Below are positions 2,787 to 64,000 of a stretch of DNA of 64,000 nt, piece by piece. Each line of letters opens with the position of its first letter. Position 1 is the stretch's first letter. The DNA lies in assembly GCA_029237695.1 (NCBI GenBank), contig CM055280.1, positions 30,919,102 to 30,983,101 of the forward strand, written 5' to 3'. The position numbers were made by a program, and so were the translations under genes. Under the pieces are notes generated by a model. The model saw only the letters and a list, made by a program, of their open reading frames with translations, ran no database searches and was not told the origin of the DNA. This stretch comes from Conchocele bisecta. Its lineage: Eukaryota > Mollusca > Bivalvia > Lucinida > Thyasiridae.

Positions 2787-3314
2787 CTAATTATTTACAG
2801 ATAGCATTAAAGGTACATGCCCACTCAGTAGGTTATATTGCCAAACATATTGTTTGGCAGTCATAGCCATCTCCATGCGGAATCTCATCACAGAGTCTTC
2901 ACAAACACTGCACAACTGGATAAGATTCTGCGTGTACATTACTTTTGGCAAGCCCTGTAGTTCCAAACTAAGTATATCAAACACTGCTTCGTCTAATCTA
3001 TAAGTCGATAAGTCGCGTTCAGCCATATTAGTGGCAGGTCTCCCCCCAAGCGGGGATGAAAAGTCTCTATTATCGTCACGGACTTGGCGGCCATCTTGTA
3101 ACACGTGACTATCAGTCTCAGCCTGTACTTGACCACATTGAAAGGCACTGTCATTAGTATTGTCACTGAGTACAACAGTCTTTAGCGACGTTTCGTCGAG
3201 ATCGTCGTAAAGATCACACTGACTGGTCATGGTGAATGTGGTGACAGACCGTTGACATACAGTGGTCGCCCTTCGATCACCATTGACGGTCCAGTGTCGA
3301 GCCGTGCGCGTCAA
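2787..3314 (-). CDS. Uncharacterised ORF (175 codons) in the family D element
   Basis: The longest plausible ORF in this part of the element reads leftward and runs out through the element's own terminal repeat, so its last 15 or so residues are encoded by the TIR. The protein is acidic in its first half (D-D-L-D-E-T). The second half, from an internal Met in M-A-E-R-D, is helical-looking and contains L-C-S-V-C-E-D. I do not recognise a family. An internal start or a spliced form is possible, since a TIR-encoded C terminus is unlikely to be native. Confidence 0.3.
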   Translation of the reverse strand: MTRTARHWTVNGDRRATTVCQRSVTTFTMTSQCDLYDDLDETSLKTVVLSDNTNDSAFQCGQVQAETDSHVLQDGRQVRDDNRDFSSPLGGRPATNMAERDLSTYRLDEAVFDILSLELQGLPKVMYTQNLIQLCSVCEDSVMRFRMEMAMTAKQYVWQYNLLSGHVPLMLSVNN

Positions 3315-3689
3315 CCAAGCGTATAATCACAAGGTCAATACCCACTAGAGCGTGACAAATCGCCGGCCAAAATCTCCCTACTAAGCCATTGTGTACGGAT
3401 TATAAGCAGGCACGAGCATATCCCGTAGGGCAGGTTAGTTAGGAGCGCACTGGGTATGTTAATTCATGAACACTTCTCACAATTTTGGATGTTTAAATCG
3501 CACATATTTCTACATATATCATCATAAAAACACAAACCTGTTACCGTTCACGAAATCCAATATAATTCCACAAATACTGATACAAATTCAGATCGAATAA
3601 TTGTCACATTTTATCACATATATATTAAATAAATCCAGATATTTGAATTAGAAAACACAATGCGTGTTTCACGCTCACGCATGTGCCTC

Positions 3690-5003
3690 CTTTTTGCATA
3701 AATAAAAACGGTTCATTTACATCAACGAAAAAACATATAGCAGAACAATGTACTAGAGCAATGTACAGTCTAATAAAAATGTCAAAGTCATTAAATTTAC
3801 CTATAGATATGCAGATAGAATTATTTGACAAACTCGTCAAACCAATACTAACATATGGAAGTGAGCTTTGGGGATTTGGAGACATAGAAGTAATAGAAAG
3901 GGTCCAGTTAAAATACCTAAAGATAATATTAAATATGAAAAAAAGCACACCAAATGTTATGGTATATGGCGAAACTGGTGTAGTTCCAATGGTTTCTTTT
4001 CGAGCAAGACAGAAAATTAGCATCAATATTTTATACTATTATACACAGTTTTTACAGAAATTAATTTAATACGACAAAATGTATAACAAAGAACGAAAAT
4101 TTGAATGGATTACGGCAGTTAAAGATATTTTGATAATATGTGGGTTAAACGGAATTTTTGTTTTACATACATTCCCGAATGAAATATGGTTGAAATCAAC
4201 TGTTAAACAAAAGTTAAGGGACCTATATATTAATGAATGGTTTAGCAGTGTTCTTGAATCATCAACTTGTTTAAATTATAGAATATATAAAACATATTTT
4301 GGATTTGAAGAATACTTGGCTATTCTTCCAAATAAGTGTAGAAACAAATATATCTGTAAAAGTGACAAAGGAGACGAATACAACCATATGTTAGGCTGCA
4401 AGAATTTGAAACACATAAGGAAACATTTTATTAAACCTTATTACTATAATAATGCAATCACATACAAATTCGAAACACTAATGAGTAATAAAAATGCCAA
4501 GGATTTAAAAAAGCTATGTAAATTTATACAGATAATTACGTTGATACTAGCTCTCCCACTCACATGTGTTCAGATTACCTTTTTAACTTAATTGTCGTCA
4601 GATATAATACATCATACAATAAATATTCACTAAAAATATAATTCATGTACAAATATAATAAGTTCATCTTACTCGTTGGAGGTACTTGTATGTGGTGCAG
4701 CATGGCGACATATAACACATCTTGCCGATAGTCAGTCATTATAGGAACTAGTTAGTTAAAAGTTATATTTATTGGGCAGTCTAAATTCCTGTTTGATTGC
4801 ACAAAAGGGCCATCTGACCAGGATCTATGCTGTTCGGAACAACGGTAACATGCGTTCTTCTCGTCATGATGTACTGTAAACAGTGCCCATGATTCATGTA
4901 CATGCTATTTCCTGAAGCCTTGTTCACATTTGTTGAAACTATATACCTCATGTTGCCATATGTTTGGACTGGATTATTAAAGGAATATTGTATTGTATTG
5001 TAT
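3690..5003 (+). mobile_element. Decayed non-LTR retrotransposon (LINE), 3' half with 3' UTR and tail
   Basis: Two reading frames (about 3683-4069 and 4079-4591), offset by a frameshift near 4070, together resemble the C-terminal part of a CR1/jockey-type reverse transcriptase polyprotein. Signature stretches are L-V-K-P-I-L-T-Y-G-S-E-L-W-G followed by R-V-Q-L-K-Y-L-K, then a C-terminal region with G-D-E-Y-N-H-M-L-G-C. The palm domain and endonuclease are absent (5' truncation). A segment seems to be missing just before G-D-E-Y. A ~400-bp 3' UTR ends in a short TATTG repeat near 4985-5003, the usual LINE tail. It is nested in the family D element. Confidence 0.75.
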
Positions 5004-5019
5004 CATAATAATTAATTAA

Positions 5020-5520
5020 AATACCTTGAATTTCAAATTAGCATTCCTACAAATTACTTATTTTTGCTGATATCACATATCATACCGACCGAGGTTAATT
5101 CAATATGTATACACCTGCAATTATAGCACAATTAATTGAATTAACTTAATTATTATTTTTCCTGACCGCGAAAAAATTTAACTTGCGATATCGCATATCA
5201 TACCGACAGAGCATAACTAAATTTTAATACACCTGAATTTATAGCATAATTAATGCAATTAACTTGAACTTCAAATTAACATTCCTAAAAATTAATTATG
5301 TTTGCTGACCAACACAAAATTTACTGACTTCAACTTGCGAAATGTTATGTCATACCGACCGAGCATAATTAAATTGGAATACAGATGAATAATAATTGAA
5401 TTAATTTGAATTTCCTAAAAATTACTTATTTTTCCTGACCGCAAACAAATTTAGCTTGCCGACCGACCATAATTAAATGGGAATACACCTGAATTTATAG
5501 CATAATTAATTGAATTAAGG
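5020..5520. repeat. AT-rich tandem repeat, ~4 units of 110-150 bp
   Basis: CATACCGACCGAGCATAATT-like unit starts recur near 5081, 5200, 5351 and 5460, each followed by GAATACACCTGAATTTATAG-like sequence and CCTGACCGC. No gene is visible. Confidence 0.7.
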
Positions 5521-5655
5521 AAACACAGTTATCGCCCCTGACAACAGTGTGGATATTGACGTCTGCTATAAAATGTATAATAATGCCAATCAATACGTGG
5601 GGTAATATTGAATGAATGTTTATTTTGCCAGAAAAAGTCTTCTGCATGTTGTGTC

Positions 5656-6135
5656 TACTGAGTGGGCATGTACCTTTAATAAATATTAATTAATTAAAAA
5701 CAATCATGCCTCATGTGCACATGAAAGTAGCCTCAGCAAACTAAATATTACAAAATGAGTATACAGCCGAACCTGTGCTAAAGACCACCTCGGAATAGCA
5801 ATCACCTGACTGTAAATGCCACACTTTCGTTGTCCCACTGGCACAATTACTATATCAATGACCCTGAGAATAAAGACCACCTGTGAACAAAGGCCAGATT
5901 TTTCACTTCCCATGGCTGGCCGTTATTCACAGGTTTGACTGTATCTGTAAAGCGGGCACTTATAATTTTTAGAACTGGTGAAATAGTGACACAAGTATAC
6001 ACTTATTTAATTCCTATAAAGAACTTGTTGTGCCTACTGAGTGGTCATGTTCCTTTAATGAATATAACTAATTAAAAAACATCATGCCTCATGTGCACAT
6101 GAAAGTAGCCTCAGTAAACTAAGTATTACAAAAAT
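5656..6135. repeat. Local duplication of a family D right end plus flank
   Basis: The stretch from CTACTGAGTGG through CATGCCTCATGTGCACATGA at 5656-5755 is repeated at about 6020-6135. The right terminal repeat of family D is therefore present twice with the same flank. The second copy also keeps upstream element sequence (about 5945-6020) found in other family D right ends. Confidence 0.65.
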
Positions 6136-6479
6136 AGCATTTACGTACTCTGACGATTTCATATCCTATTATATTGAAATAGCATATGCATGCACTCCAT
6201 ATTGAGTTTATGTAATAAAAATCAACTGTATATGTATGTCAGACGTTGAATACCGACTTATCATTGAAAAGAAGAATGTTATAGAAACATTACATTATTT
6301 CATCATACATATATATATTGCTTTACCTAATCTATAACAATTTGAATTTCTATCAATTACTTGCAGTTTACCAAATGATAAGTGATATCAATAGGTTGTA
6401 CATCAATCACTATGTATATACCGTCCTTTTGTGGAAATCATGTACCTTTCGCAGAAAAAAAACTTGGGAACCTTTAAAT

Positions 6480-6590
6480 TATAGCAGACACACTGTCGCC
6501 TTTTTGCCATGCTTATATCATGCTTATCTACTCATATACCGCGGTCTGAGATCTTGAAAAAATAAAGATATGTTCTGTTCTGTTCTGTAT
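6480..6590 (+). mobile_element. LINE 3' end with TGTTC tail
   Basis: A short A/T-rich stretch ends in AATAAAGATATGTTC followed by TGTTC repeats. This is the usual 3' terminus of a molluscan LINE. No coding remnant is seen. Confidence 0.45.
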
Positions 6591-6731
6591 TAACATGACG
6601 AATGAAACCGTGTTTCGCGATATTTCGCATTACCTCATATCCCATATATTAAGTATCTGCCCGTCATAACCTGTACATCTCTAACATTCATATCCCATAC
6701 GTCTCTGATCTGCATACGTCTCTGTCCTAAG

Positions 6732-6935
6732 GTGGTTGTAGCGCGCCGACGGACCCTGCCGACGGAAGTATCGGAAGTATCAGCCTTGACGGCGATGCCG
6801 GTGCAATAATGACCGGCGACACAGCGACAGTCACGTGCTCTGCCGGTTTCGAACTGAGGAGCGGCCAGGCGAGCATTACGATTACGTGCCGACCCGACCA
6901 GTCTTGGAGCGCCATTCCGAATTGCTATACCGGTG
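6732..6935 (+). CDS. Internal exon encoding a second CCP/sushi domain
   Basis: The acceptor CTGTCCTAAG ends at 6731. A strong GTGAGT donor begins at 6936, and a weaker in-frame GT at 6933 is also possible. The exon is 204 nt and phase 1 at both ends. The translation shows a full CCP module: G-C-S-A-P-T-D-P, then V-T-C-S-A-G-F-E-L, I-T-C-R-P-D and W-S-A-I-P-N-C, four cysteines and one Trp. The loop between cysteines 1 and 2 carries an S-I-G-S-I-S insertion relative to the exon at 2191. The gene is the same as at 2191-2370 by strand and phase. A palindromic family A element starts 12 bp after the donor. Confidence 0.85.
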
Positions 6936-6946
6936 GTGAGTTTATC

Positions 6947-7168
6947 ATATGAGACACACCATGGGACTTTGTACCTTCGGACATCTGCATACTTTCATGA
7001 AATACGTTAACAAAATTTACAATTTTTTTCGCGTAATAATGTACTCTAAAATTTTGACAACTTTTGACTCTATTTATGAAAAATAGTGTAAATTTTGTAA
7101 ACGTATTTCATGAAATTACGTATTACGCAGATGTACGAAGGTACAAAATCCCATGGCGTGTCTCACAT
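6947..7168. repeat. Family A palindrome in the intron after the second CCP exon
   Basis: The left arm begins ATATGAGACACACCATGGG and the right arm ends CATGGCGTGTCTCACAT. The left-arm sequence is nearly identical to the copy at 1501, including the intron bases just before it, so exon and palindrome were probably duplicated together. Confidence 0.8.
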
Positions 7169-7332
7169 TATCTGGCCGTGACTGGTGAAATGGGGTTTAT
7201 GGGTTTTGTGACCAGTGTAGATATGAAGAAACCCGGGTTTGAGTGATCATTGTGGATTTGGCTTGCTATGATATTGTATTAACATGACGACTGAATACCG
7301 TGTATCGCGATATTTCGCATTACCTCATATCT

Positions 7333-8500
7333 ACGGCAGCTTAAAGGGACATGCGCAGTTTTGTTTCTATGTCGTTCCCACGAGATAGCATCTCGTTACC
7401 ACGACATAGCATCTCGTTCCAACGAGATAGCATCCCGTTACCACAAGTTGGCTATGTCGTTCGCACGACATAGCATCTCGTTCCTTCGAGATAGGTAGCC
7501 AATGAAAATGAAGCATAATTACCGCCATATTAGTCCGACTGCCGGGAGCTTAATCTTGTTTTGCTTAACTTAGTTTTTTATTGGCGATTTTGCTTGTCCA
7601 TGCCATCCACATCAAGAATCCGGCTGATGACACTCTGTCATCCTTGAGCCTTTTGACAAATTTGCATAAATTCAAAATGGCCGCCAAACAGTTATACTAT
7701 GGCGTGTGAGATATTGAAGTAATTTAATAGCGTAAATTGGATTTACTTGACTTATCAGATAAGCGGTCAACAGTTTTAATATTAAATTCAATTCACTGTG
7801 ACATAAATGGCCGCCAAATGTGACATATTTTACTTATAACTACTCTCACACTCTATATCAAAGCAAACATGATACTGATATTAGATATATTGACACAATA
7901 AACGCTTTCAGTACGTTCGATATGTTCGTAGACAAGTTGTAGAACAGGGGTAGTCCAAGATGGCCGCCACATATACATATAGTATCATATAACAATAATG
8001 TAAACGACTGATAATTAGTAATACTATATAGCTGCATATTAGCGCCATATCGTAGTAGATTTATATAAATGTATTGAATTTAGGCATACACTGAACGTTT
8101 TCAGAAACTTGGAAATATAATTAAATAACTGTTCAAATAGCAGAAGTCAAAAATGGCCTCAAAATATTTAAGAAAACGTCACGTTGCCTTATATTGCGCA
8201 AATTGCATAATACTTACTGGGGCTATTGATTAAGCATGTTAGTATGTATATATCTCGGGTTTATGGACATATCGGTCGTTTTATGTAACTTTCAAATGCA
8301 ATATTAGACAATTGTGTCAATAGAAGAAGCCTTAGATGGCCGCCAGATATAAATTACCTTGCAATGACAATCATATTGTGTAATGATTCAAATATGAAAT
8401 GTCACGTTGACCTATTTCAAAGAAAACACACATATTTATGTCAATCTTGTGTTCTTTTGTAACATTGATATGTAATTAGACACGTGTTCCAATAGCAGAA
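7333..8500 (-). repeat. Dispersed element with internal ~130-190 bp units (copy 2, inverted)
   Basis: This is the reverse-complement counterpart of 1-1375. A short-palindrome block (about 7360-7495) is followed by five units carrying AAGATGGCCGCC-like motifs near 7675, 7805, 7960, 8150 and 8333. It abuts a half copy of family A at 8500. Confidence 0.65.
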
Positions 8501-54452: not shown

Positions 54453-54683
54453 CACTTCGACTTATTCTGAATGAAAACAGCCTTGTATTCCGGAGGATTC
54501 AACAATTCATCATTGCCTCTATTCGCTTCACTGCATGATGGCAGACGACTCAGACTGGCAGACTGATCTGTTCGACATAGTCAATAATAGTACTTCAAAT
54601 GTGTATTAGGTCAACGACTACCTACAGAAGACAACACCAATGGTTTGAGATGCCTGGGATCTCCACTTCTTTTTTATTCAATT

Positions 54684-55450
54684 ATTATGGTGGCTGATTA
54701 GGGACATTTCGCCTCGTCGCTCCGTCGCTCCGTCGCCACGAAGTTTATCGCTCCTTCGCGGCGACGGAGCGATAATTATCGCTCCTTCGCGGCGAAGGAG
54801 CGACGAGACGAAATTTAGTGTCCTTAAACTTCGCTTCGTCGCTTCGTCGCCCCGTCGCCCCGTCGCTCCGTCGCTTCGTCGCCCCGTCGCTCCGTCGCCA
54901 CGACGGAGCGATAATTATCGCTTCTTCGCGGCGACGGGAGCGATAAACTTCGTGGCGACGGAGCGACGGAGCGAAGTTTAAGGACACTAAACTTCGCCTC
55001 GTCGCTCCTTCGCCACGACGGAGCGATAAACTTCGTGGCGACGAAGCGACGGAGCGATAATTATCGCTCCTTCGCGGCGACGGAGCGATAATTATCGCTC
55101 CTTCGCGGCGAAGGAGCGACGAGACGAAGTTTAGTATCCTTAAACTTCGCTCCGTCGCTCCGTCGCCACGAAGTTTATCGCTCCGTCGCCACGAAGTTTA
55201 TCGCTCCGTCGCTGCGAAGAAGCGATAATTATCGCTCCGTCGTGGCGACGAAGCGACGGAGCGACGAAGAGACGGAGCGACGGGGCGACGAAGCGACGAA
55301 GCGACGAAGCGAAGTTTAAGGATACTAAACTTCGTCTCGTCGCTCCTTCGCCGCGAAGGAGCGATAATTATCGCTCCGTCGCCGCGAAGGAGCGATAAAC
55401 TTCGTGGCGACGGAACGACGAGGCGAAATGTCCCTAATCAGCCACCATAA
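54684..55450. repeat. Foldback element made of nested short palindromes
   Basis: Outer inverted ends TTATGGTGGCTGATTAGGG and its complement flank ~700 bp built almost only from CGTCGCTCC, GCGACGGAGCG, TCGCGGCGAAGG and GATAATTATC words. Many form perfect hairpins. The boundary phrase AAGTTTAGTGTCCTTAAACT recurs inside as an internal palindrome. Confidence 0.85.
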
Positions 55451-55454
55451 ATAA

Positions 55455-56270
55455 TTAACCAAACTTGCCTATGTATACACTGTACGTATTCGTGTCACAT
55501 TACTATTTACTTAAGAGAATAATTCACATAAGCTGACGTTGAGCTTGTTTTCTAATCCGTATTCACAATTTCTGCCCATGTATGTTGACGTATACATGTA
55601 TTTAATCTGAAATAAATATTGGTTAAACTAAAAGTTGATATCGAAAACGTTTCACCATGTGTGTAATGAGCATGCGCAGTGAATATAAATCGGTAACGAT
55701 TGCTGACTCGGGGAAAATACGCCGATGCCTGTGTCCGCGACCTCTGGCCATGTCCTGCTATTTACAGCCGGTTACACAAACACTTCGTAACACCTTTAAA
55801 AAAGAAACTCATCAATGGACGTGGTACCGGAATGGTTTCACAGTTTTTGTATCTCTGAGCATGCGCAGTGAAGATAAAACAAGGAAACGCACCGAAACCA
55901 CAAAGACTGGTTTCCTGACAAGCGTACCGCAAACGTGATACTATTTACCAGTATGTGGCTGTGACTGGTGAAATGAAGCTTATGGGATTTGTTGCCAGTG
56001 TCACTCCTGATCAAATAGCACTCGTGTTGCCTGATAACGATATTATCAGGAAACCTGTCCTGTATTGACCGAATACGTACTGACTGATAACATATTGTTG
56101 TATCAGACATTGACCTGATACAAATATCCGGGTTACATTGAAGTGAAATCTGACGTTCCATTGAACGGATGACATCATGTGACGTTACCGAATGACGTCA
56201 GTGTACTGACGCAACGTAAACAAGCCCGACGTCATCTGTGTCATTTTCGAGCATAAAACGTTACCTGATA
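55455..56270. other. No gene; family B fragment and paired GCATGCGCAGTGAA motifs
   Basis: GAGCATGCGCAGTGAA occurs near 55667 and 55857, about 190 bp apart. A family B left end (GTGGCTGTGACTGGTGAAAT) starts near 55953. Confidence 0.45.
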
Positions 56271-56276
56271 AATAGA

Positions 56277-56396
56277 ACACCAGGCTAGTGTCTTTTGATA
56301 TCAAGTTTATCAGGCTCTGTTCGGAAACGGTAGGAATTCCTCGGCGTTTCCTAGCCTTGCCTGATAAACTTGATATCAAACGACACTGGCCTGGTA
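56277..56396. repeat. 120-bp inverted repeat
   Basis: ACCAGGCTAGTGTCTTTTGA and its complement bound the repeat, with TATCAAGTTTATCAGGCT inside. A half copy lies near 13450-13505. Confidence 0.7.
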
Positions 56397-56442
56397 TTCT
56401 CTATGTATCTGTCCTGTGTCCCTCCAGAGATATGCATATATA

Positions 56443-56749: not shown

Positions 56750-57980
56750 ATGCCCAAGGAATTAGATAGACGAAAAGGATACAAGGGTGGAATTTAGATT
56801 AATACCTGGGGTGTAGAAATTAGAAGTTTTCAGGTCTTGTCTTATACTGTTGTTTCAAAGGAAAAAACGCTTTCCTGCCCTCGGAAATTAGAAGTTAATT
56901 TCTACAAAACAAGGAGGTGTCTAATTCCCGTAATATATGAGAACACACTCCACCCAACCCCCGATCGGAGGAATTAGACAGAAATGTAATTCCTATATGC
57001 CGGATACGTTGACTTAATACTATCGAAATTGTGGTAGTTTTGTAGACCTAGACCAGTCTGCACAGTTTTGCGTCAAAATGTAGTGAATGATATAAGGGAA
57101 ACAACCCCTGCATATACAAGTTATCTGGTTGTAACAGTTATCTCCCATTGACCAGCCAAGGGCGATTGCATTGTCACCCATCACGGAAAATATAGGCCTC
57201 TTGCGTTTGCAGCCAGCGTATATATATAGAATATGGGGCTCCTGCAATATAATCTCAGTTTTAGCTTTCTCAGACCCTGTGGTTAGAAGTTTATATATAT
57301 CTTTGTACAAAAGTACCAAACTATATAGTAGTTTTGTACTTTTGTATGGAGCTCCTGCAATATAATCTCAATTGTAAACTTCTCAGCCTTTGAGACTAGG
57401 AATTTACCAAAATAATACTTGATATACAAAACTATATAGTTGTTTTGTACGAAAGCCATAATCTTCAGCAAAATATATGCAATGAACCACGAAACCGCTA
57501 TATCACAATCCCCCTAAGTCTGGCAGACTCTTGTCTGAATGGTTTCTCTACTTTATAGTATCTCTCCTTTAATCTTACTTTATGTGCTCCACATTGAAAT
57601 CAACCATATATTTATAACACAAATTACTCTAGACCACACCACCTATTTCCCAAATTAGTGCTTAATTTCACAAAATTCGATTGAAAATCTAATAATTAAC
57701 TTTGTATGGCCTTATGGAGAGCGAGGCAGTATCAAGTTATGTATAGATAATGGGGACTTTATTTTACAGGTAAGCTGTAATCGAATAACTACCCAAGTAA
57801 GTGTTAATCCCTGAAACAGTCAGTATCTATAAATGTACACACACACATAGATAAGATAGATATACCTATGTATGTTTATCAATATAATTAATTTACATAT
57901 GAAGGGAAATAACTTACCATAGGATTGTCATTAATTATGTAGCGTGGGTTATCTTCCCGAGTCCTACAATATAGAAAAAA
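56750..57980. other. No gene; one ~110-bp duplication
   Basis: GGGGCTCCTGCAATATAATC near 57235 and GGAGCTCCTGCAATATAATC near 57349 start two copies. This is the last host-like sequence before the virus-like block. Confidence 0.45.
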
Positions 57981-57982
57981 TA

Positions 57983-58016
57983 CATTCCACAGTATCGCCA
58001 GCGACACTGTGGAATG
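57983..58016. repeat. 34-bp near-perfect palindrome left of the virus-like block
   Basis: CATTCCACAGT and ACTGTGGAATG flank TCGCCAGCGA, which is itself self-complementary around CA. Only one mismatched pair breaks the whole. It could mark the element's edge or be a small host foldback. Confidence 0.5.
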
Positions 58017-58056
58017 TTGGGAATCCATAAGGCATCAAAATGGGTGTATGAGCACA

Positions 58057-58090
58057 TGCATTTATATATATATATATATATATAAATGCA
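58057..58090. terminator. Perfect 34-bp TA-core palindrome just after the leftmost viral-type gene
   Basis: TGCATTTA and TAAATGCA flank a (TA)9 core and end a few bases from the stop codon at 58094. It could act as a transcript-end or cruciform signal; function is inference. Confidence 0.4.
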
Positions 58091-58093
58091 TTT

Positions 58094-58528
58094 TTAAGTC
58101 AATCTATATGCTATAAACCCAACAATAGTCATTCCGCCTACTATAAATATAATTTCTCTATCCTTTTGACTCTGTGAAGGTGTATCATAATCACTCAGTA
58201 CCGGTTCCTTCCCAAATGACTGTAATTGTTGTGCACCTGTCACCGGTGCCGTAACAGCATTATACTCCCTAATAGCTTCATCTACATCCTCAAACGTCTT
58301 AGCAGCGTGATTCTGCTTTCTAATTTCATTATTAATCCAATCTAATCTATCTGTTCTTTTTTCTGCCCACTGTGCCTGTGCCTTTTGTAATTGCTCTACG
58401 GCATTATCATGCCTTTTGCGTTCTTCAATCGTAGAATTATTCCCCAATGAACTGAATAAGAAATTACTCCCTGTAAACGCCAATGCGTTAACCAAAGCAC
58501 CGCCAACCATCATAGCTATTCCAGACAT
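58094..58528 (-). CDS. Virus-like block: 144-aa protein with two membrane segments
   Basis: This gene is open and complete. Residues 3-28 are hydrophobic and glycine-rich (M-V-G-G-A-L-V-N-A-L-A-F). Residues 34-90 are charged and helical, probably coiled coil (E-E-R-K-R-H, then R-L-D-W-I-N-N-E-I-R). Residues 125-141 form a C-terminal membrane segment (I-I-F-I-V-G-G-M-T-I-V-G-F). It is the last of a run of minus-strand genes, 22 bp after the stop of the next one. I know similar uncharacterised proteins from invertebrate genomes where they accompany the same capsid-type genes, but this is recollection, not a search. A role as a minor or membrane-associated virion protein is inference. Confidence 0.7.
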   Translation of the reverse strand: MSGIAMMVGGALVNALAFTGSNFLFSSLGNNSTIEERKRHDNAVEQLQKAQAQWAEKRTDRLDWINNEIRKQNHAAKTFEDVDEAIREYNAVTAPVTGAQQLQSFGKEPVLSDYDTPSQSQKDREIIFIVGGMTIVGFIAYRLT

Positions 58529-58550
58529 CTTGTTTATTATAATAATTTTA

Positions 58551-58790
58551 TTACTTCAAAATATTATCAGGAATTATACCTTGTTTAACAAGCATATCTC
58601 TCGTAGCAATAGCAAGTCCAGTATCCAACATTAACATAGCCATATTATAACCATCAAGTTGCAGTTTTGGTGCCGCCTGTCTTATAATTTTATTCATTAA
58701 CTGTGCATATCCGATTTCAAGCGCCGTTATTACAGCAGCATGATATGCAAGATTTCCAATTATCTTTCCATCTGTATTAATTGCCGTCAT
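58551..58790 (-). CDS. Virus-like block: 79-aa two-helix hydrophobic protein
   Basis: A small open gene. Residues 10-30 (I-I-G-N-L-A-Y-H-A-A-V-I-T-A-L-E-I-G-Y) and 49-64 (N-M-A-M-L-M-L-D-T-G-L-A-I-A-T) are hydrophobic helices joined by a short basic linker. The end is V-K-Q-G-I-I-P. The ATG is preceded by a single G and then an uninterrupted 21-A tract on the coding strand. No known catalytic motif. Its position between two other small membrane-type genes suggests a structural or membrane role, which is inference. Confidence 0.65.
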   Translation of the reverse strand: MTAINTDGKIIGNLAYHAAVITALEIGYAQLMNKIIRQAAPKLQLDGYNMAMLMLDTGLAIATRDMLVKQGIIPDNILK

Positions 58791-58791
58791 C

Positions 58792-58812
58792 TTTTTTTTT
58801 TTTTTTTTTTTT
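58792..58812 (-). promoter_or_regulatory. 21-nt poly(A) tract one base before a start codon
   Basis: On the coding (minus) strand 21 consecutive A residues are followed by G and the ATG of the 79-aa gene. A genomic A tract at this position would give the transcript a poly(A)-like leader. It may also just be a slippage-expanded AT-rich leader. Confidence 0.5.
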
Positions 58813-58848
58813 ACTTAATAATAAATTTAATTTAATTTAATTAATTGT

Positions 58849-59208
58849 TTACTCCATCAGATGCGGATTGTGTTTTACACTAGGCAGTTCAGGTTCTTTT
58901 GTTTCAATGTTATTTCGATTGAACAATTTACAGCCAAACACAAACCCACCAATTAAACTCATTCCCGCTATAAAATATATTATTTTCGAGGTTTTATAGA
59001 CTTTCACTATAACTGGTTCTTCAGGTGGTATGTCTACTTTCTTCTTATGTACCATATGTAATAGACTTTCTTGTTTGGCTTTCCTAGCAGCAGCACCCTT
59101 TTTACCAGCTTCAACCCTCTTTGGATTCTTTGCTGTTACTTGTTTGATCTCCTCTTTTCGTTCTAGAATTTCTTCATCAGGAATCTGTTGTGTGTTCTCC
59201 GTTTCCAT
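58849..59208 (-). CDS. Virus-like block: 119-aa basic protein with one membrane segment
   Basis: Open and complete. Residues 1-22 are acidic, and residues 28-57 are strongly basic and lysine/alanine-rich (K-N-P-K-R-V-E-A-G-K-K-G-A-A-A-R-K). A single membrane segment spans about residues 76-96 (I-I-Y-F-I-A-G-M-S-L-I-G-G-F-V-F), followed by a polar tail. A basic patch on a membrane-anchored protein could bind DNA or capsid; this is inference. Its start, in an AATAATGG context, overlaps the in-frame tail of the upstream gene by about 30 nt, as the ATPase start overlaps the capsid gene. I recall similar small lysine-rich membrane proteins next to this gene set in invertebrate genomes. Confidence 0.65.
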   Translation of the reverse strand: METENTQQIPDEEILERKEEIKQVTAKNPKRVEAGKKGAAARKAKQESLLHMVHKKKVDIPPEEPVIVKVYKTSKIIYFIAGMSLIGGFVFGCKLFNRNNIETKEPELPSVKHNPHLME

Positions 59209-59692
59209 TATTTTTATTTATATCATTTATATTTTTAAATTGACAATATTTAAATGTTGTTATCGCTGCAGTAATAGGTGCCAGTAATGCTCCAAACCTA
59301 AACTACAACTCACAGCAAGTACTAGTCAATGCATGGTCAACAAATGGATCCCCTTCTAAATCAGCTACGAGTTTATGATGATTTCCTGCTGGTATAGGCA
59401 AGATATTACCTGCAGCTAGAGCATACATATTCAAAATAGTATTACCAAGAGTTTTCGTCATTGAAGCACCCAATCTACTTTCATATCTGTTATACAATTG
59501 TAATATTTGTTCATTTGGCAACTCTTCTAGTTGTGAAATAGTTATATCTTTACCTAAATATTGAACAGATTTCCAACCTGAAATAATCGAAGATAACCGT
59601 TGTTTTAAGTGATCATTATTTACTCCACCTACAGTACTATCAGTGGATATTTTATCATCATTTAGTTGTTCTATAAGTTCCTCATAATTCAT
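59177..59692 (-). pseudogene. Virus-like block: ~170-codon gene with one in-frame TAG
   Basis: From ATG at 59690-59692 (preceded by AAATAAAA) the frame runs 129 codons to TAG at 59303-59305. It then stays open and protein-like (G-A-L-L-A-P-I-T-A-A-I-T-T) to a TGA at 59177. The conserved-looking core is Y-N-R-Y-E-S-R-L-G-A-S-M-T-K-T-L-G and L-P-I-P-A-G-N, then D-P-F-V-D-H-A-L-T-S. The TAG interrupts what I judge to be the end of the domain, so the gene is probably inactivated by a point mutation. A longer start at 59788 would add a hydrophobic N terminus but lies in the AT-rich leader. Function is unknown. Confidence 0.65.
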
Positions 59693-59788
59693 TTTTATTT
59701 TGCATAATATAAATTTTAATTTAAAATAAACCCAACCCGATCCAAATATAATAATCAATAATTGTATGAATATCAATATCTCAAACAT

Positions 59789-59981
59789 TTCATATATTCA
59801 TAGAATTATTTAAGTTAAATTTGCTTAGAACAACTCAACAATGTTAAGCAATACATATTTGCTGAACAATTCTTAACATTGTTATCTATGAATTGTTCAG
59901 CTAAATCAAGTTAAATCAAGTTAAAATCCAGTAAAATAAGTAAAATAAAAAATATTAAGTAATACTAAGTAAAACAAAGCA
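59789..59981. promoter_or_regulatory. Intergenic region with two interleaved inverted repeats
   Basis: AACAATGTTAAG (59837-59848) pairs with CTTAACATTGTT (59872-59883). GCTGAACAATTC (59861-59872) pairs with GAATTGTTCAGC (59890-59901). The order A-B-A'-B' makes the two stems mutually exclusive or pseudoknot-like. AAATCAAGTT direct repeats follow near 59904-59925. It is the longest gene-free gap in the block, so a promoter or replication signal is plausible but unproven. Confidence 0.5.
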
Positions 59982-60653
59982 TTACTTAAGTAATTTATAC
60001 TCCGTAGGCTGATCAGTTCTAATAAGCAACTTAGAATGTTTTGTTTTCGATAACTCTTTTCTTATTTTGTTTCTTTCCTCTAGTGTCGAAATAACATCAT
60101 TTTCTCTCAAACAGTCCTCAAAACTATCTCTGTCTTTCGTACAGAACATACACAGCCATTTTGTCTGTTCTCTTAAGTCTTTTAATACTGAATTATATCT
60201 TTGTGATATAACCCAAACGCTTTGCTATGCATGTCGTCCAGAGAATGCGAGCTGTGACAACATATCTTTTTTATTTGTTAATTGCTTTGTAGCTGAACAG
60301 TCATCAATGATATATAAAGTTGGACTTCCAGCATATTTATTAAAAAATAATCTTAACAGATCTTGCAGCTTCTCTTCGCCATTATTACCAACTGGATTAA
60401 CAATCGTTATTTTTTTATCGATTGGTCGGCGTACATCCCTTATCCAACTTCTGTTTTTATAAGCCTTGTTCCATGCTATAGTTGGACAAAGTATAACTAT
60501 ATTATCAAACACCCCATCATACCCACATTGTTGCCGTGAAAGCTCAAGTAGGTCAAGGACAAATTCTGTTTTACCACATTCAGTTTGACCACAGAAAATA
60601 GCACTATGTGCATACTTTTGTAAATCAATATAACGCCGATACAAATCTTCCAT
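59982..60653 (-). pseudogene. Virus-like block: A32-type packaging ATPase (FtsK-HerA superfamily), one in-frame TAG
   Basis: The 223-codon frame from ATG 60651-60653 shows a Walker A motif G-Q-T-E-C-G-K-T (residues 22-29) and a hydrophobic Walker B strand ending I-I-D-D (115-118). An S-G-R-H segment (138-141) follows, typical of A32-like genome-packaging ATPases of Polintons, virophages and large DNA viruses. A TAG at 60225-60227 (codon 143) interrupts the frame. Beyond it the frame continues protein-like (W-V-I-S-Q-R-Y-N-S-V-L-K-D-L-R-E and R-D-S-F-E-D-C) to the stop at 59982. Such enzymes drive DNA into preformed capsids. The start overlaps the capsid gene's end by 29 nt in another frame, implying co-expression. 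The size suits small A32-type enzymes (about 200-260 residues). Confidence 0.85.
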
Positions 60654-61514
60654 TTTCTATATTTAATTGCGCATCTTGAAATATAAATAAATATATATTT
60701 ATTGCACTTGCAGCTTCAGCTTCTTTAGTAATCTGAATTGTAATACATTCACTCGCATTTTCTATTCTCCGGTGACGAAGAATTCTATCATACAAAATTG
60801 ACATTTGTCCCATATATTGATTTTTTACCATTGTTGCTAAATTAGGCTCTGTGACCATATCAAATTCTAAACTTATATTATTAATTTCATAATTAGCAGC
60901 TAAGTCACCTGTGGCTATTATTACCCTTGAATAATCATTAAATGTAAGTTCATATTCGAGCCTATCACCCAAACCAGATTGATAATAAGGCATATGGGCT
61001 TCAAGAAGTTCAAAATATAATGGTATATAAAATCGATTACCAAATGTATCTGCGATAGCTTTATCTTCAGCGTTTCCAGAACTAGCATCTGCTGCTCCAG
61101 TTCTTAATTTTGTTACATTTGAACAGTATCTATACCTTGATAAACCATATTATTTCGCTCTGGAGGTGTTTTCCATAGGTCACGATAGATGTAATACACA
61201 TCTGAATCATCGATTGATAAAATTTCATTACCAGATATTTTAATAGTTGTTTTCTTGACGATTGCACGACCAAGATTTTGAACCACTCGGCGATTGTCAT
61301 CAGTGGAGGTTAATGCAATTGTAAAAGCTAAACGAACTGTTCCAGGTACGATTAAATCATTTGGACCTAAATTTGGGAATCGCACTAAAAGCTGTTGGTT
61401 TTGATTAATTGTAGATGGATTATTTGTTATTGTAACTGATTGTCTAATTCCTTTTACACCGAGAGGCTCTCTTAAATGTCTGTAGGGATTAAGCTTTCTT
61501 CCGTATGTTGCCAT
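60625..61514 (-). pseudogene. Virus-like block: double-jelly-roll-type major capsid protein, frameshifted and shortened
   Basis: Two frames make up one gene. The first starts at ATG 61512-61514 and encodes 133 residues, with V-R-F-P-N-L-G-P-N-D, then N-L-G-R-A-I-V-K-K and I-S-G-N-E-I. The second continues from about 61125 to the stop at 60625, with F-Y-I-P-L-Y-F and L-E-Y-E-L-T-F-N-D. The strand pattern (a turn-rich start, a G-R-A-I strand followed by a G-N-E-I hairpin, then a Y-I-P-L strand) is that of the first jelly roll in Polinton/NCLDV-type capsid proteins. One frameshift lies near 61113-61125. The total is about 295 codons, well below the usual 400-650, and I suspect an internal deletion with its junction near 60770. 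It would form the icosahedral shell. It is clearly inactive as it stands. Confidence 0.75.
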
Positions 61515-61573
61515 TATTCATTTTAATTTTATTTATAAATTGCATACATGTACTTTAAAATAAATAATAAATA
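61515..61573. promoter_or_regulatory. 59-bp divergent promoter region
   Basis: This AT-rich interval separates the minus-strand capsid gene from the plus-strand gene at 61574. Both start codons are in ATAATGG context with AAATAA/AAATTAAAA-type sequence just upstream. A TATA-like word sits on each strand. Bidirectional transcription is inference. Confidence 0.5.
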
Positions 61574-62824
61574 ATGGCTGAAGGTGGAGAAGGAGATTTT
61601 ATGCATTATGATAATGATACGTATGACCCTGATGGTGATGAAGAAACACAACTGATACCCCCCGATGTTCCAATGACATTACCTGATTTACAAACGGAAA
61701 AACTAACTCCAGCGAATGATCGTCCTCTACGAGTAAAAACTTTAGAGCTTTTTAAAACTCTATTCCAAAAGGAGTTTAAAGTAACAGATCAGGAGTTTCA
61801 GTTACTAATTCCAGACCTACACACAGAAAACAAAACACTGTTCTGGAAGGATCACCGCATTAGTAAAAAGGGGGACCCTAATATCTTAATAAGAACTTTT
61901 AAAGGTAAAGGAACAGCTAAATTAAAACGGTTATTGAATCTACAAGAGGCCCACTTGGCTCCAGAAGCTGTTAATAAAATACAAACTATAGAAAACGAAT
62001 TACCAAATCTTGAAAACATAGAAATGTCTGAATTACCAAGTACAGTTGATGAAACAGAAACACATGTAAAAGAACAAATTGATACACTATCAAAAGAAAC
62101 ATCAACTACAATTACAAATGGTTTTGAAACGTTGCCATTAGGAGAACTTAAAGCCTTAAACAAAGCAATGCAACAATCAAGAGGCTCACTAACCAACAAC
62201 CTTGCCAAGTTAAATGAATTGGACAAAAATAAAGATGCTGCAGTGTTAAAACTGGTAGCTGTAACTACATTTGATTCAGACAGTCCAGATGCAGACCGTA
62301 TCGAAAGAGAAATTGCTGATATTGTATCTGAGCGTGAAGCACGTCTTGAAGCGATTTCAGCGGATAGGGAAGCCTTAAGAACTCAAGTATCCAGAATAAA
62401 AGAGACCCTCGATAGAATATTACACAAAGATACTACTTTAAGAGAAAGACGCAAAACCCTCTTCAAAGAACAGGGGATAACTATTGTTTCTGTTTTGACA
62501 GCTATAGGGTTTATAATCTCTACTTTAATTTTAAGTATTACTGGAGGTGCAAGTGGTGGTGCAGCCTCTCCCAAACCACCAGGAAAAGGTGGAGCTAAAT
62601 AATGGATAAAGAAACAATTAAAACATCTGAGTTCATTACTGGGTATGCTAGCAGGGAAGGCAGTAGATGCATTACCAGGGATAATCGGTTCTATAGTAGC
62701 TTGGGTGTTGAATGCAGCAGGAAAGGCTGTTGGATGGCTAGCCAATAATGTATGGGTTTTGATTATTACAGTTGCTGGGCTTCTTTATATGGCCGGTAAG
62801 GATTATATTTTCTCTCGAAAGTAA
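61574..62824 (+). pseudogene. Virus-like block: coiled-coil protein with C-terminal membrane segments, one in-frame TAA
   Basis: The open part (61574-62602) encodes 342 residues: an acidic N terminus, a globular stretch with K-E-F-K-V-T-D-Q-E-F (residues 66-75), long charged helices likely coiled coil (about 120-295), and a membrane segment at 301-321 followed by a glycine/proline tail. After TAA (62600-62602) the same frame stays open for 73 more codons with two hydrophobic stretches (I-I-G-S-I-V-A-W-V-L; V-W-V-L-I-I-T-V-A-G-L-L) and ends at 62824. The tail looks like part of the original protein. It is the only plus-strand gene of the block, diverging from the capsid gene and converging with the gene at 62803 with a 22-bp 3' overlap. 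Function is unknown; a virion membrane-contacting or fibre-like role is speculation. Confidence 0.65.
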
Positions 62825-64000
62825 AATAATAGCAGTCCCAACCCAACTGCAATACTACCAGTGACTAGTGCAGTTTTATGATTTTCATGTTTGACTGCTT
62901 CTATTTTGTCAGGTATTGAGACTGTTGGTTTAACATTCAAAGGTTTATTCAAAGGTTTAACATCCAAAGGTTTAACAATACTATTTTCATGGGTTTGCAC
63001 AGGCGGTGGAACTGGTAAACTATTTACATCACCATTAAACCCCAAAGTTTGATCACAACTTGCAATTACAATTAAATTATTGTAATTTTGAATACTTCCT
63101 ATCTGCAAATCCATGTTGCTTGGGGCCATATACAAACCAATTCCATATACAAAATCAACTTTTGACCTTGCATATTTTAGTACATTTTGATAGTTTGAAA
63201 TTATTGTGGGTAAGTCAACAGCTCTATTAATTGCATCATTAACATTGGCTAAATATTGTTTTTGCGCATCAAATGCAGTCCCAGTACCAATAATGGAAGT
63301 TCTTGTTTGAGATTGAGCTCCAAGAATTGACCACACATAAACTATAATACTATCATTTAATCGTTCAACTCCAGCTTCAGTGAACCCAATTGAATTATCT
63401 AGAACAAAACTAGTCCAAGCATTAGTAATATCGACGTGATGGGTAATCGTGTACATCAAAAAATGGTGATACCTTACCTCCATGGCTCAATCCTGAAGGT
63501 CTCATAAACATTGTAAAACCGCCAAGATTATGATTCCCATGGTCTATTTTTTGTCTGAAGTCCTTATTTGGATTAATACCAAATTCAGTGCATATTCTAT
63601 GGTAAGCTGAAAGATCAAAATTATTATCATACCAACAATAGCTGTGATCATCTGGTAAAGGAACTTTCATTTGAGCTAAGATTCGAAGTGTTTGATACAT
63701 AATATGAAATTCATATAAGGATCTCAAACACGGATCATTTGTAATTGTTAAATGCTGGTTATATGAAACACCGCACCCACAAGTAGCACACCATATTGCA
63801 AAGTTAAATTGATTCTGATACCACCCCATTTGATTATTCATCCAATTGTTATATGCTTTGTTGTTGTTTGAGACATTACCAGTTATTGAGGGGTTTGGAT
63901 ACCCAGCTAATGCGTTGGAATATGTAGCTTTGAAACTTTTATCTTTTGTAACATAAACATCAACATTGTAAAACATTGGAACCGTTTTCAAAGCATATAT
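62803..64000 (-). pseudogene. Virus-like block: large protein, frameshifted, 5' end beyond the window
   Basis: The frame is open at the right edge and runs to 63422 (about 190 codons seen). The reading then continues in another frame from about 63480 to the stop at 62803 (226 codons). A shift in the overlap, next to a six-T tract near 63454, would join them. The first part has W-C-A-T-C-G-C-G-V-S-Y and a helix-rich stretch (L-R-S-L-Y-E-F-H-I-M-Y-Q). The second has N-A-W-T-S-F-V-L-D, G-V-E-R-L-N-D-S-I and F-D-A-Q-K-Q-Y, then a linker with repeated P-L-N-V-K-P-like words, and ends in a membrane segment (V-T-G-S-I-A-V-G-L-G-L-L-L-F-Y-F). I recall similar uncharacterised proteins beside this gene set in invertebrate genomes. 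The role is unknown. Confidence 0.65.

What the first reader, a model, noticed from the sequence alone, without database searches (positions are those of the whole stretch)
58094..64000. Integrated virus-like morphogenesis block with a packaging ATPase and a double-jelly-roll-type capsid gene
Seen: eight closely packed AT-rich genes, with a Walker A/B ATPase overlapping a jelly-roll-like protein and several small hydrophobic proteins, unlike the gene-poor, intron-bearing host DNA around them. Known: paired A32-type ATPase and DJR capsid genes define Polintons, Polinton-like viruses, virophages and adintoviruses. Inferred: this is an animal member of that world, with a conserved set of accessory membrane proteins lacking assigned functions. 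No polymerase, integrase, helicase or protease is in view.
Basis: partly seen in the sequence, partly recalled or inferred. Interest (0 to 1): 0.92.

Follow-up and report, generated by a model that had tools for sequence, protein, structure and literature searches.

The report
Decayed copy of a Polinton virus
The block is the first half of a decayed 14.4-kb Polinton-type virus copy, one of many in this (likely animal) genome, with a packaging-ATPase gene and a capsid gene predicted to make a double jelly roll; two such lineages here share capsid and integrase genes but have dissimilar, likely exchanged, polymerases and different DNA ends.

Summary
Window 57220-64000 is the first 6.8 kb of a 14,399-bp provirus; beyond the edge lie an RVE integrase, a broken family-B polymerase and the second inverted repeat. 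The eight genes in view are eight of 15. In this copy the capsid gene is frameshifted and has lost about 100 codons, and the ATPase has an internal stop; other copies keep open frames. The modelled capsid is a double jelly roll. It is a Polinton-type provirus with three variant features. (1) Target duplications are 5 bp (perfect in 9 of 11 scored pairs of this lineage and 9 of 10 tag pairs of a second one), not the 6 bp reported for vertebrate Mavericks. (2) The second lineage shares ten collinear genes plus the integrase, but its polymerase aligns at only 23%, lies at the other end, and its ends start AGTAGT instead of ATATATATAG: polymerase and ends look like an exchangeable unit. (3) A conserved tail-anchored protein has a confident model (pLDDT 84.5) without a match in the structure libraries. 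No protease was found. Virions, activity and host species were not shown; polymerase exchange as such is already reported for adintoviruses.

The parts
57215..57219 (.). left copy of the 5-bp target-site duplication AGCGT; the right copy is L009:8221-8225 (C16:30990720-30990724)
57220..57565 (+). left terminal inverted repeat, starting ATATATATAG; pairs with the right one that ends at L009:8220, 89-90% identical
58094..58528 (-). p144, small protein with a C-terminal hydrophobic segment; open here; 52-56% identical in lineage B
58551..58790 (-). p79, small conserved protein; open here
58849..59208 (-). p119, protein with one hydrophobic segment; open here; not found in the two lineage B copies
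59180..59788 (-). p203, protein with N-terminal hydrophobic segment; shortened here to 161 residues by a stop
59985..60653 (-). A32-type packaging ATPase gene; stop inside at 60225-60227 in this copy
60625..61514 (-). major capsid protein gene (double jelly roll predicted from a relative); frameshift near 61123 and about 100 codons missing in this copy
61574..62602 (+). p342, coiled-coil-like protein with a hydrophobic segment near its end; a further open stretch to about 62824 resembles the membrane tail that in lineage B appears to belong to the same gene
62803..64000 (-). p375/p427 gene (continues to L009:647), tail-anchored protein whose relative has a confident model without structural match; split by a frameshift near 63445 in this copy

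Best explanation
The block is the left half of a 14.4-kb Polinton-type provirus with a broken capsid and ATPase gene, flanked by a 5-bp target duplication, and its ancestors likely spread by copying linear DNA from protein-primed ends, packaging it into capsids and integrating it with their own integrase. Shown: inverted repeats, 5-bp duplications, integrase, polymerase, ATPase and capsid genes, many copies, and a second lineage with ten of the same genes and the same integrase but a dissimilar polymerase and other end motif. Inferred: the left-hand genes (capsid, ATPase, p342, p375, p144, p119, p203) build a particle, perhaps one with an inner membrane, since five of 16 frames and the C-terminal piece of p375 carry a strong hydrophobic segment; the polymerase sets the end motif and the integrase sets the 5-bp stagger; copies decay neutrally once inserted. 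Capsid-gene changes carried by three or more copies are more often silent than private ones (46 replacing to 29 silent, against 198 to 62), as expected if the protein was selected while the element still multiplied.
For: Ends and duplications. Integrase, ATPase, polymerase families. Capsid fold. Copies. Gene order in four copies of lineage A and two of lineage B. Hydrophobic segments. Selection pattern. The lineage B element at C8:52676913-52694963 has its own capsid gene and a perfect 5-bp duplication (TATGC).
Against: No protease found (the genome search for PF00770 was silent, but so were its 14 controls). The minor capsid protein is only a candidate by position (p220), with no sensible family or solved-structure match. 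Lineage A's polymerase frames hit no Pfam polymerase model; the call rests on alignment to lineage B's piece (23% over 187 residues, E 6e-11), which does hit DNA_pol_B_2 (26.3 bits, cut-off 25.8), and on motifs recalled from memory. The capsid model is of a 79%-identical relative and of modest confidence (pLDDT 66.8, pTM 0.64). The selection test is weak (Fisher p 0.018), ignores the relatedness of copies and used copies ranked by likeness to one query. Two of 11 scored pairs lack a perfect 5-bp repeat. No particle, transcript or new insertion was observed. No relative was confirmed in IMG/VR contigs.
Confidence: 0.9

Rival explanations
1. A chimera: a Polinton replication and integration module that captured the capsid genes of a large nucleocytoplasmic DNA virus (poxvirus-like), as noted in print for the contig Meld23486.
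Against: Foldseek ranks the mavirus capsid second with practically the same E-value as the best iridovirus chain (1.4e-13 and 1.3e-13), and among viral models an adintovirus protein is sixth. The 2014 Polinton capsid paper reports that the Hydra Polinton capsid retrieves only PBCV-1 VP54, so such a ranking is within the range of ordinary Polinton capsids. No capsid tree was made; the Meld23486 sequence was not compared.
Confidence: 0.2
2. An infectious adintovirus-type animal virus that endogenised repeatedly, rather than an element that amplified mainly by transposition inside the germ line.
For: Virion gene set, relatives at 64-79% identity in many other assemblies (best 120 of 3376 listed), shared capsid changes look selected.
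Against: Copies within the genome are close (mean dS 0.075 among 23 capsid frames), which germ-line amplification explains equally; no host-virus tree was made; the adintovirus criteria (hexon, chromodomain, OTU domain) were not tested or not detected here.
Confidence: 0.35
3. Host genes or a chance cluster of frames.
For: None beyond the fact that the frames lie in a large eukaryotic chromosome.
Against: Same order in several dispersed copies, precise ends, target duplications and viral gene families.
Confidence: 0.01

Closest known systems
Polintons / polintoviruses (Krupovic et al. 2014, PMC4028283; the sections on PY and PX read in full, other passages by search)
   Same: family-B polymerase, RVE integrase, packaging ATPase, double-jelly-roll capsid, inverted repeats, 14-18 kb, many copies; capsid close to the PBCV-1 type, as reported there for Hydra
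   Different: no adenovirus-type protease found (identifiable in 74% of Polintons there); 5-bp target duplications; minor capsid protein only a candidate
Vertebrate Mavericks (PMC8097293; passages read)
   Same: genes on both strands, inverted repeats; lineage B ends start AGTAGT, the common Maverick motif
   Different: Mavericks have 6-bp duplications, and their capsid and protease lie with the integrase, the ATPase with the polymerase; here 5 bp, no protease found, capsid next to ATPase; lineage A ends start ATATATATAG
Adintoviruses and other meldviruses, incl. Meld23486 (PMC11071296; section 16 read in full, other passages by search)
   Same: polymerase and integrase of Polinton type joined to a capsid with some likeness to poxvirus D13; mixed capsid/polymerase pairings (Alpha/Beta) are reported there, so polymerase exchange as such is known
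   Different: no integration sites, duplications or copy numbers in the passages read; chromodomain and OTU domain not detected here by Pfam; sequences not compared
Mavirus-type virophages and Polinton-like viruses
   Same: double-jelly-roll capsid and packaging ATPase; mavirus capsid is the second Foldseek match
   Different: lower VIA-align Z than the top rows (mavirus 10.1, Sputnik 11.7); no helicase family hit in the frames scanned by Pfam beyond sub-threshold rows; a long family-B polymerase is present

Membership tests
Polinton-type provirus | RVE integrase | tested here: met
   L009:2924-3826, Pfam rve 33.0 bits over cut-off 32.6
[quoted passage not shown]
   lineage B piece hits DNA_pol_B_2 26.3 over 25.8; lineage A frames align to it, 23% over 187 residues, E 6e-11, but hit no polymerase model themselves; protein priming not tested
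[quoted passage not shown]
Polinton-type provirus | A32/FtsK-type packaging ATPase | tested here: met
   open frame of the C2 copy: Pox_A32 33.6 bits over 22.8; phrog_2666 E 5.8e-13
Polinton-type provirus | single-jelly-roll minor capsid protein | tested here: inconclusive
   p220 (L009:692-1354) is a candidate by position; no family match; not folded
Polinton-type provirus | adenovirus-type cysteine protease (identifiable in 74% of Polintons) | tested here: inconclusive
   no hit in the 30 frames scanned, some of them the same gene in different copies; PF00770 silent in this genome and in all 14 controls
Polinton-type provirus | terminal inverted repeats | tested here: met
   314 of 348 aligned columns identical in the window copy
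Vertebrate-type Maverick | 6-bp target-site duplication | tested here: not met
   5-bp perfect in 9 of 11 scored lineage A pairs and 9 of 10 lineage B tag pairs, 6-bp perfect in 0 of 11 and 0 of 10
Vertebrate-type Maverick | (AGT)2 or (AG)3 end motif | tested here: not met
   window lineage starts ATATATATAG; lineage B does start AGTAGT
Adintovirus | hexon recognisable by BLASTP as an adintovirus hexon | not tested
   no reference hexon sequence at hand
Adintovirus | integrase with C-terminal chromodomain; polymerase with N-terminal OTU-like domain | tested here: inconclusive
   neither seen by Pfam, but remote domains can be missed
Meldvirus of the Meld23486 kind | capsid with D13-like fold beside adintovirus-like polymerase and integrase | tested here: inconclusive

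The most novel reading that the evidence does not exclude
One Polinton lineage in which polymerase and DNA ends travel as an exchangeable replication cassette between elements that keep the same virion genes and a 5-bp-stagger integrase, and which builds a membrane-containing particle with a tail-anchored protein of a fold not seen before.
Probability: 0.4. Interest if true: 0.75.

Novelty: new variant of a known kind. Interest (0 to 1): 0.55.

Why it matters
Two multi-copy lineages in one genome that share virion genes and integrase but not polymerase or ends separate, by natural experiment, what the polymerase may fix (the end motif) from what the integrase may fix (the stagger). The many terminal tags (4335 matches of the lineage B tag) make this a rich record for dating and for testing whether such elements move as viruses or as transposons. 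The conserved p375/p427 protein gives a concrete target for finding what these particles look like.

Full report
Observation. The window is G000:C16:30919102-30983101 of a 1.89-Gb genome. Compared with proteins of other copies, this copy is damaged: capsid gene 61514-60628 has a frameshift near 61123 and lacks residues about 283-381 of the 429-residue frame; the ATPase gene 60653-59985 has a stop at 60225-60227; p203 is shortened by a stop; p342 is followed by an open stretch that in lineage B appears to belong to the same gene; the p375 gene is split near 63445.

What lies beyond the edge. The locus L009 (C16:30982500-30992400) holds the rest: p220, p181, p198, p106, an RVE integrase at 2924-3829 (Pfam rve 33.0 bits, cut-off 32.6), a broken family-B polymerase on 3798-7581 and p94. 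The ends are inverted repeats, 314 of 348 columns identical. The element spans window 57220 to L009:8220, that is 14,399 bp, between two copies of AGCGT.

Ends and duplications. In lineage A the ends read ATATATATAG...CTATATATAT. Of 16 element pairs, 11 could be scored by script: 9 have a perfect 5-bp direct repeat, against 0 of 110 mispaired ends; a 6-bp repeat is perfect in 0 of 11; the two others match at 4 and 2 of 5 positions. Three more with a variant end show 5 bp by eye. Vertebrate Mavericks are reported with 6-bp duplications and (AG)3 or (AGT)2 ends (PMC8097293, passages).

Copies. The capsid piece has 150 scored matches, itself included, out of 9535 candidates. A 21-base end tag of lineage A occurs 117 times forward and 113 reverse (one mismatch allowed), the reversed-letter control 0; among the first 100 rows 34 pairs face each other 5.5-31 kb apart, 25 of them at 14-18 kb.

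A second lineage. A search with the full capsid frame also lists 32 capsid genes at 67-69% identity, none with a stop inside (98 of 15131 candidates scored, so selected for likeness). Two such elements were read (C1 and C8); they are 91-94% identical to each other over the larger aligned stretches. Ten genes of lineage A (p144, p79, p203, ATPase, capsid, p342, p375, p220, p181, p198), in the same order and relative orientation, plus the integrase are found in the C8 copy; eight of the ten plus the integrase in the C1 copy. Identities by piece run from 24 to 68%: capsid 68%, ATPase 57-59%, integrase 57-67%, or 48% in its second piece in C1. p119, p106, p94 and the polymerase pieces gave no match at 1e-3. 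Pairwise, a polymerase piece of each aligns at 23% over 187 residues, while the integrases align at 60% over 270. In lineage A integrase and polymerase follow p198; in lineage B they lie at the other end, beyond p144. Three of the 32 lineage B capsid rows have a listed lineage B polymerase row within 15 kb, always 5.7-6.2 kb away; both lists are truncated. Lineage B ends read AGTAGTATATAAGAG. The C8 element (C8:52676913-52694963, 18,051 bp) has repeats 97% identical over 196 columns and the perfect 5-bp duplication TATGC; the left end of the C1 element was not found. Ten further pairs of lineage B tags on C1, whose contents were not checked, give 9 perfect 5-bp repeats and 0 perfect 6-bp ones; mispaired 0 of 90. 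The tag occurs 2153 + 2182 times with up to two mismatches, control 0; one variant has two tags per end, so ends number fewer, and an estimate of about a thousand or more elements is an extrapolation.

Selection. Among 23 full-length capsid copies mean dS is 0.0745 and dN 0.0377; changes private to one copy are 186 replacing, 12 stops and 62 silent, changes shared by three or more are 46 and 29 (Fisher p 0.018). This fits selection during spread and neutral decay afterwards, but relatedness of copies was not modelled.

Known work. Searches for Polinton with bivalve, adintovirus, poxvirus D13, target-site duplication, meldvirus, clam and TSD length showed no listed title or abstract start that describes this family; most listed papers were not opened. 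A 2024 preprint (PMC11071296; section 16 read, other passages) reports mixed capsid/polymerase pairings in adintoviruses and one contig with a D13-like capsid, so exchange as such is not new; its link to end motif and stagger inside one genome is what this case adds. Also seen: one section and the abstract of PMC11071308 and passages of PMC2836005 and PMC10328495.

Noticed in passing
54672-55463: G+C-rich array of short palindromic repeats (TCGCTCCGTCGC-type units) with inverted arms of 221 bases at 95% complementarity, left of the provirus.
   Followed up: no
56274-56400: Fold-back repeat with two 56-base arms, 86% complementary, 15 bases apart.
   Followed up: no
57304-57347: Imperfect palindrome inside the inverted repeat that matches the other end in both orientations, as if the segment had flipped.
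   Followed up: partly
L084:3958-4063; 22 close tag pairs in the first 100 rows: Lineage B ends carry, in one variant, a second, inverted copy of the end tag about 106 bases inside the terminus.
   Followed up: partly
P0098: A relative with capsid and A32-type ATPase in one 643-residue frame, on a 3.4-Mb contig.
   Followed up: no
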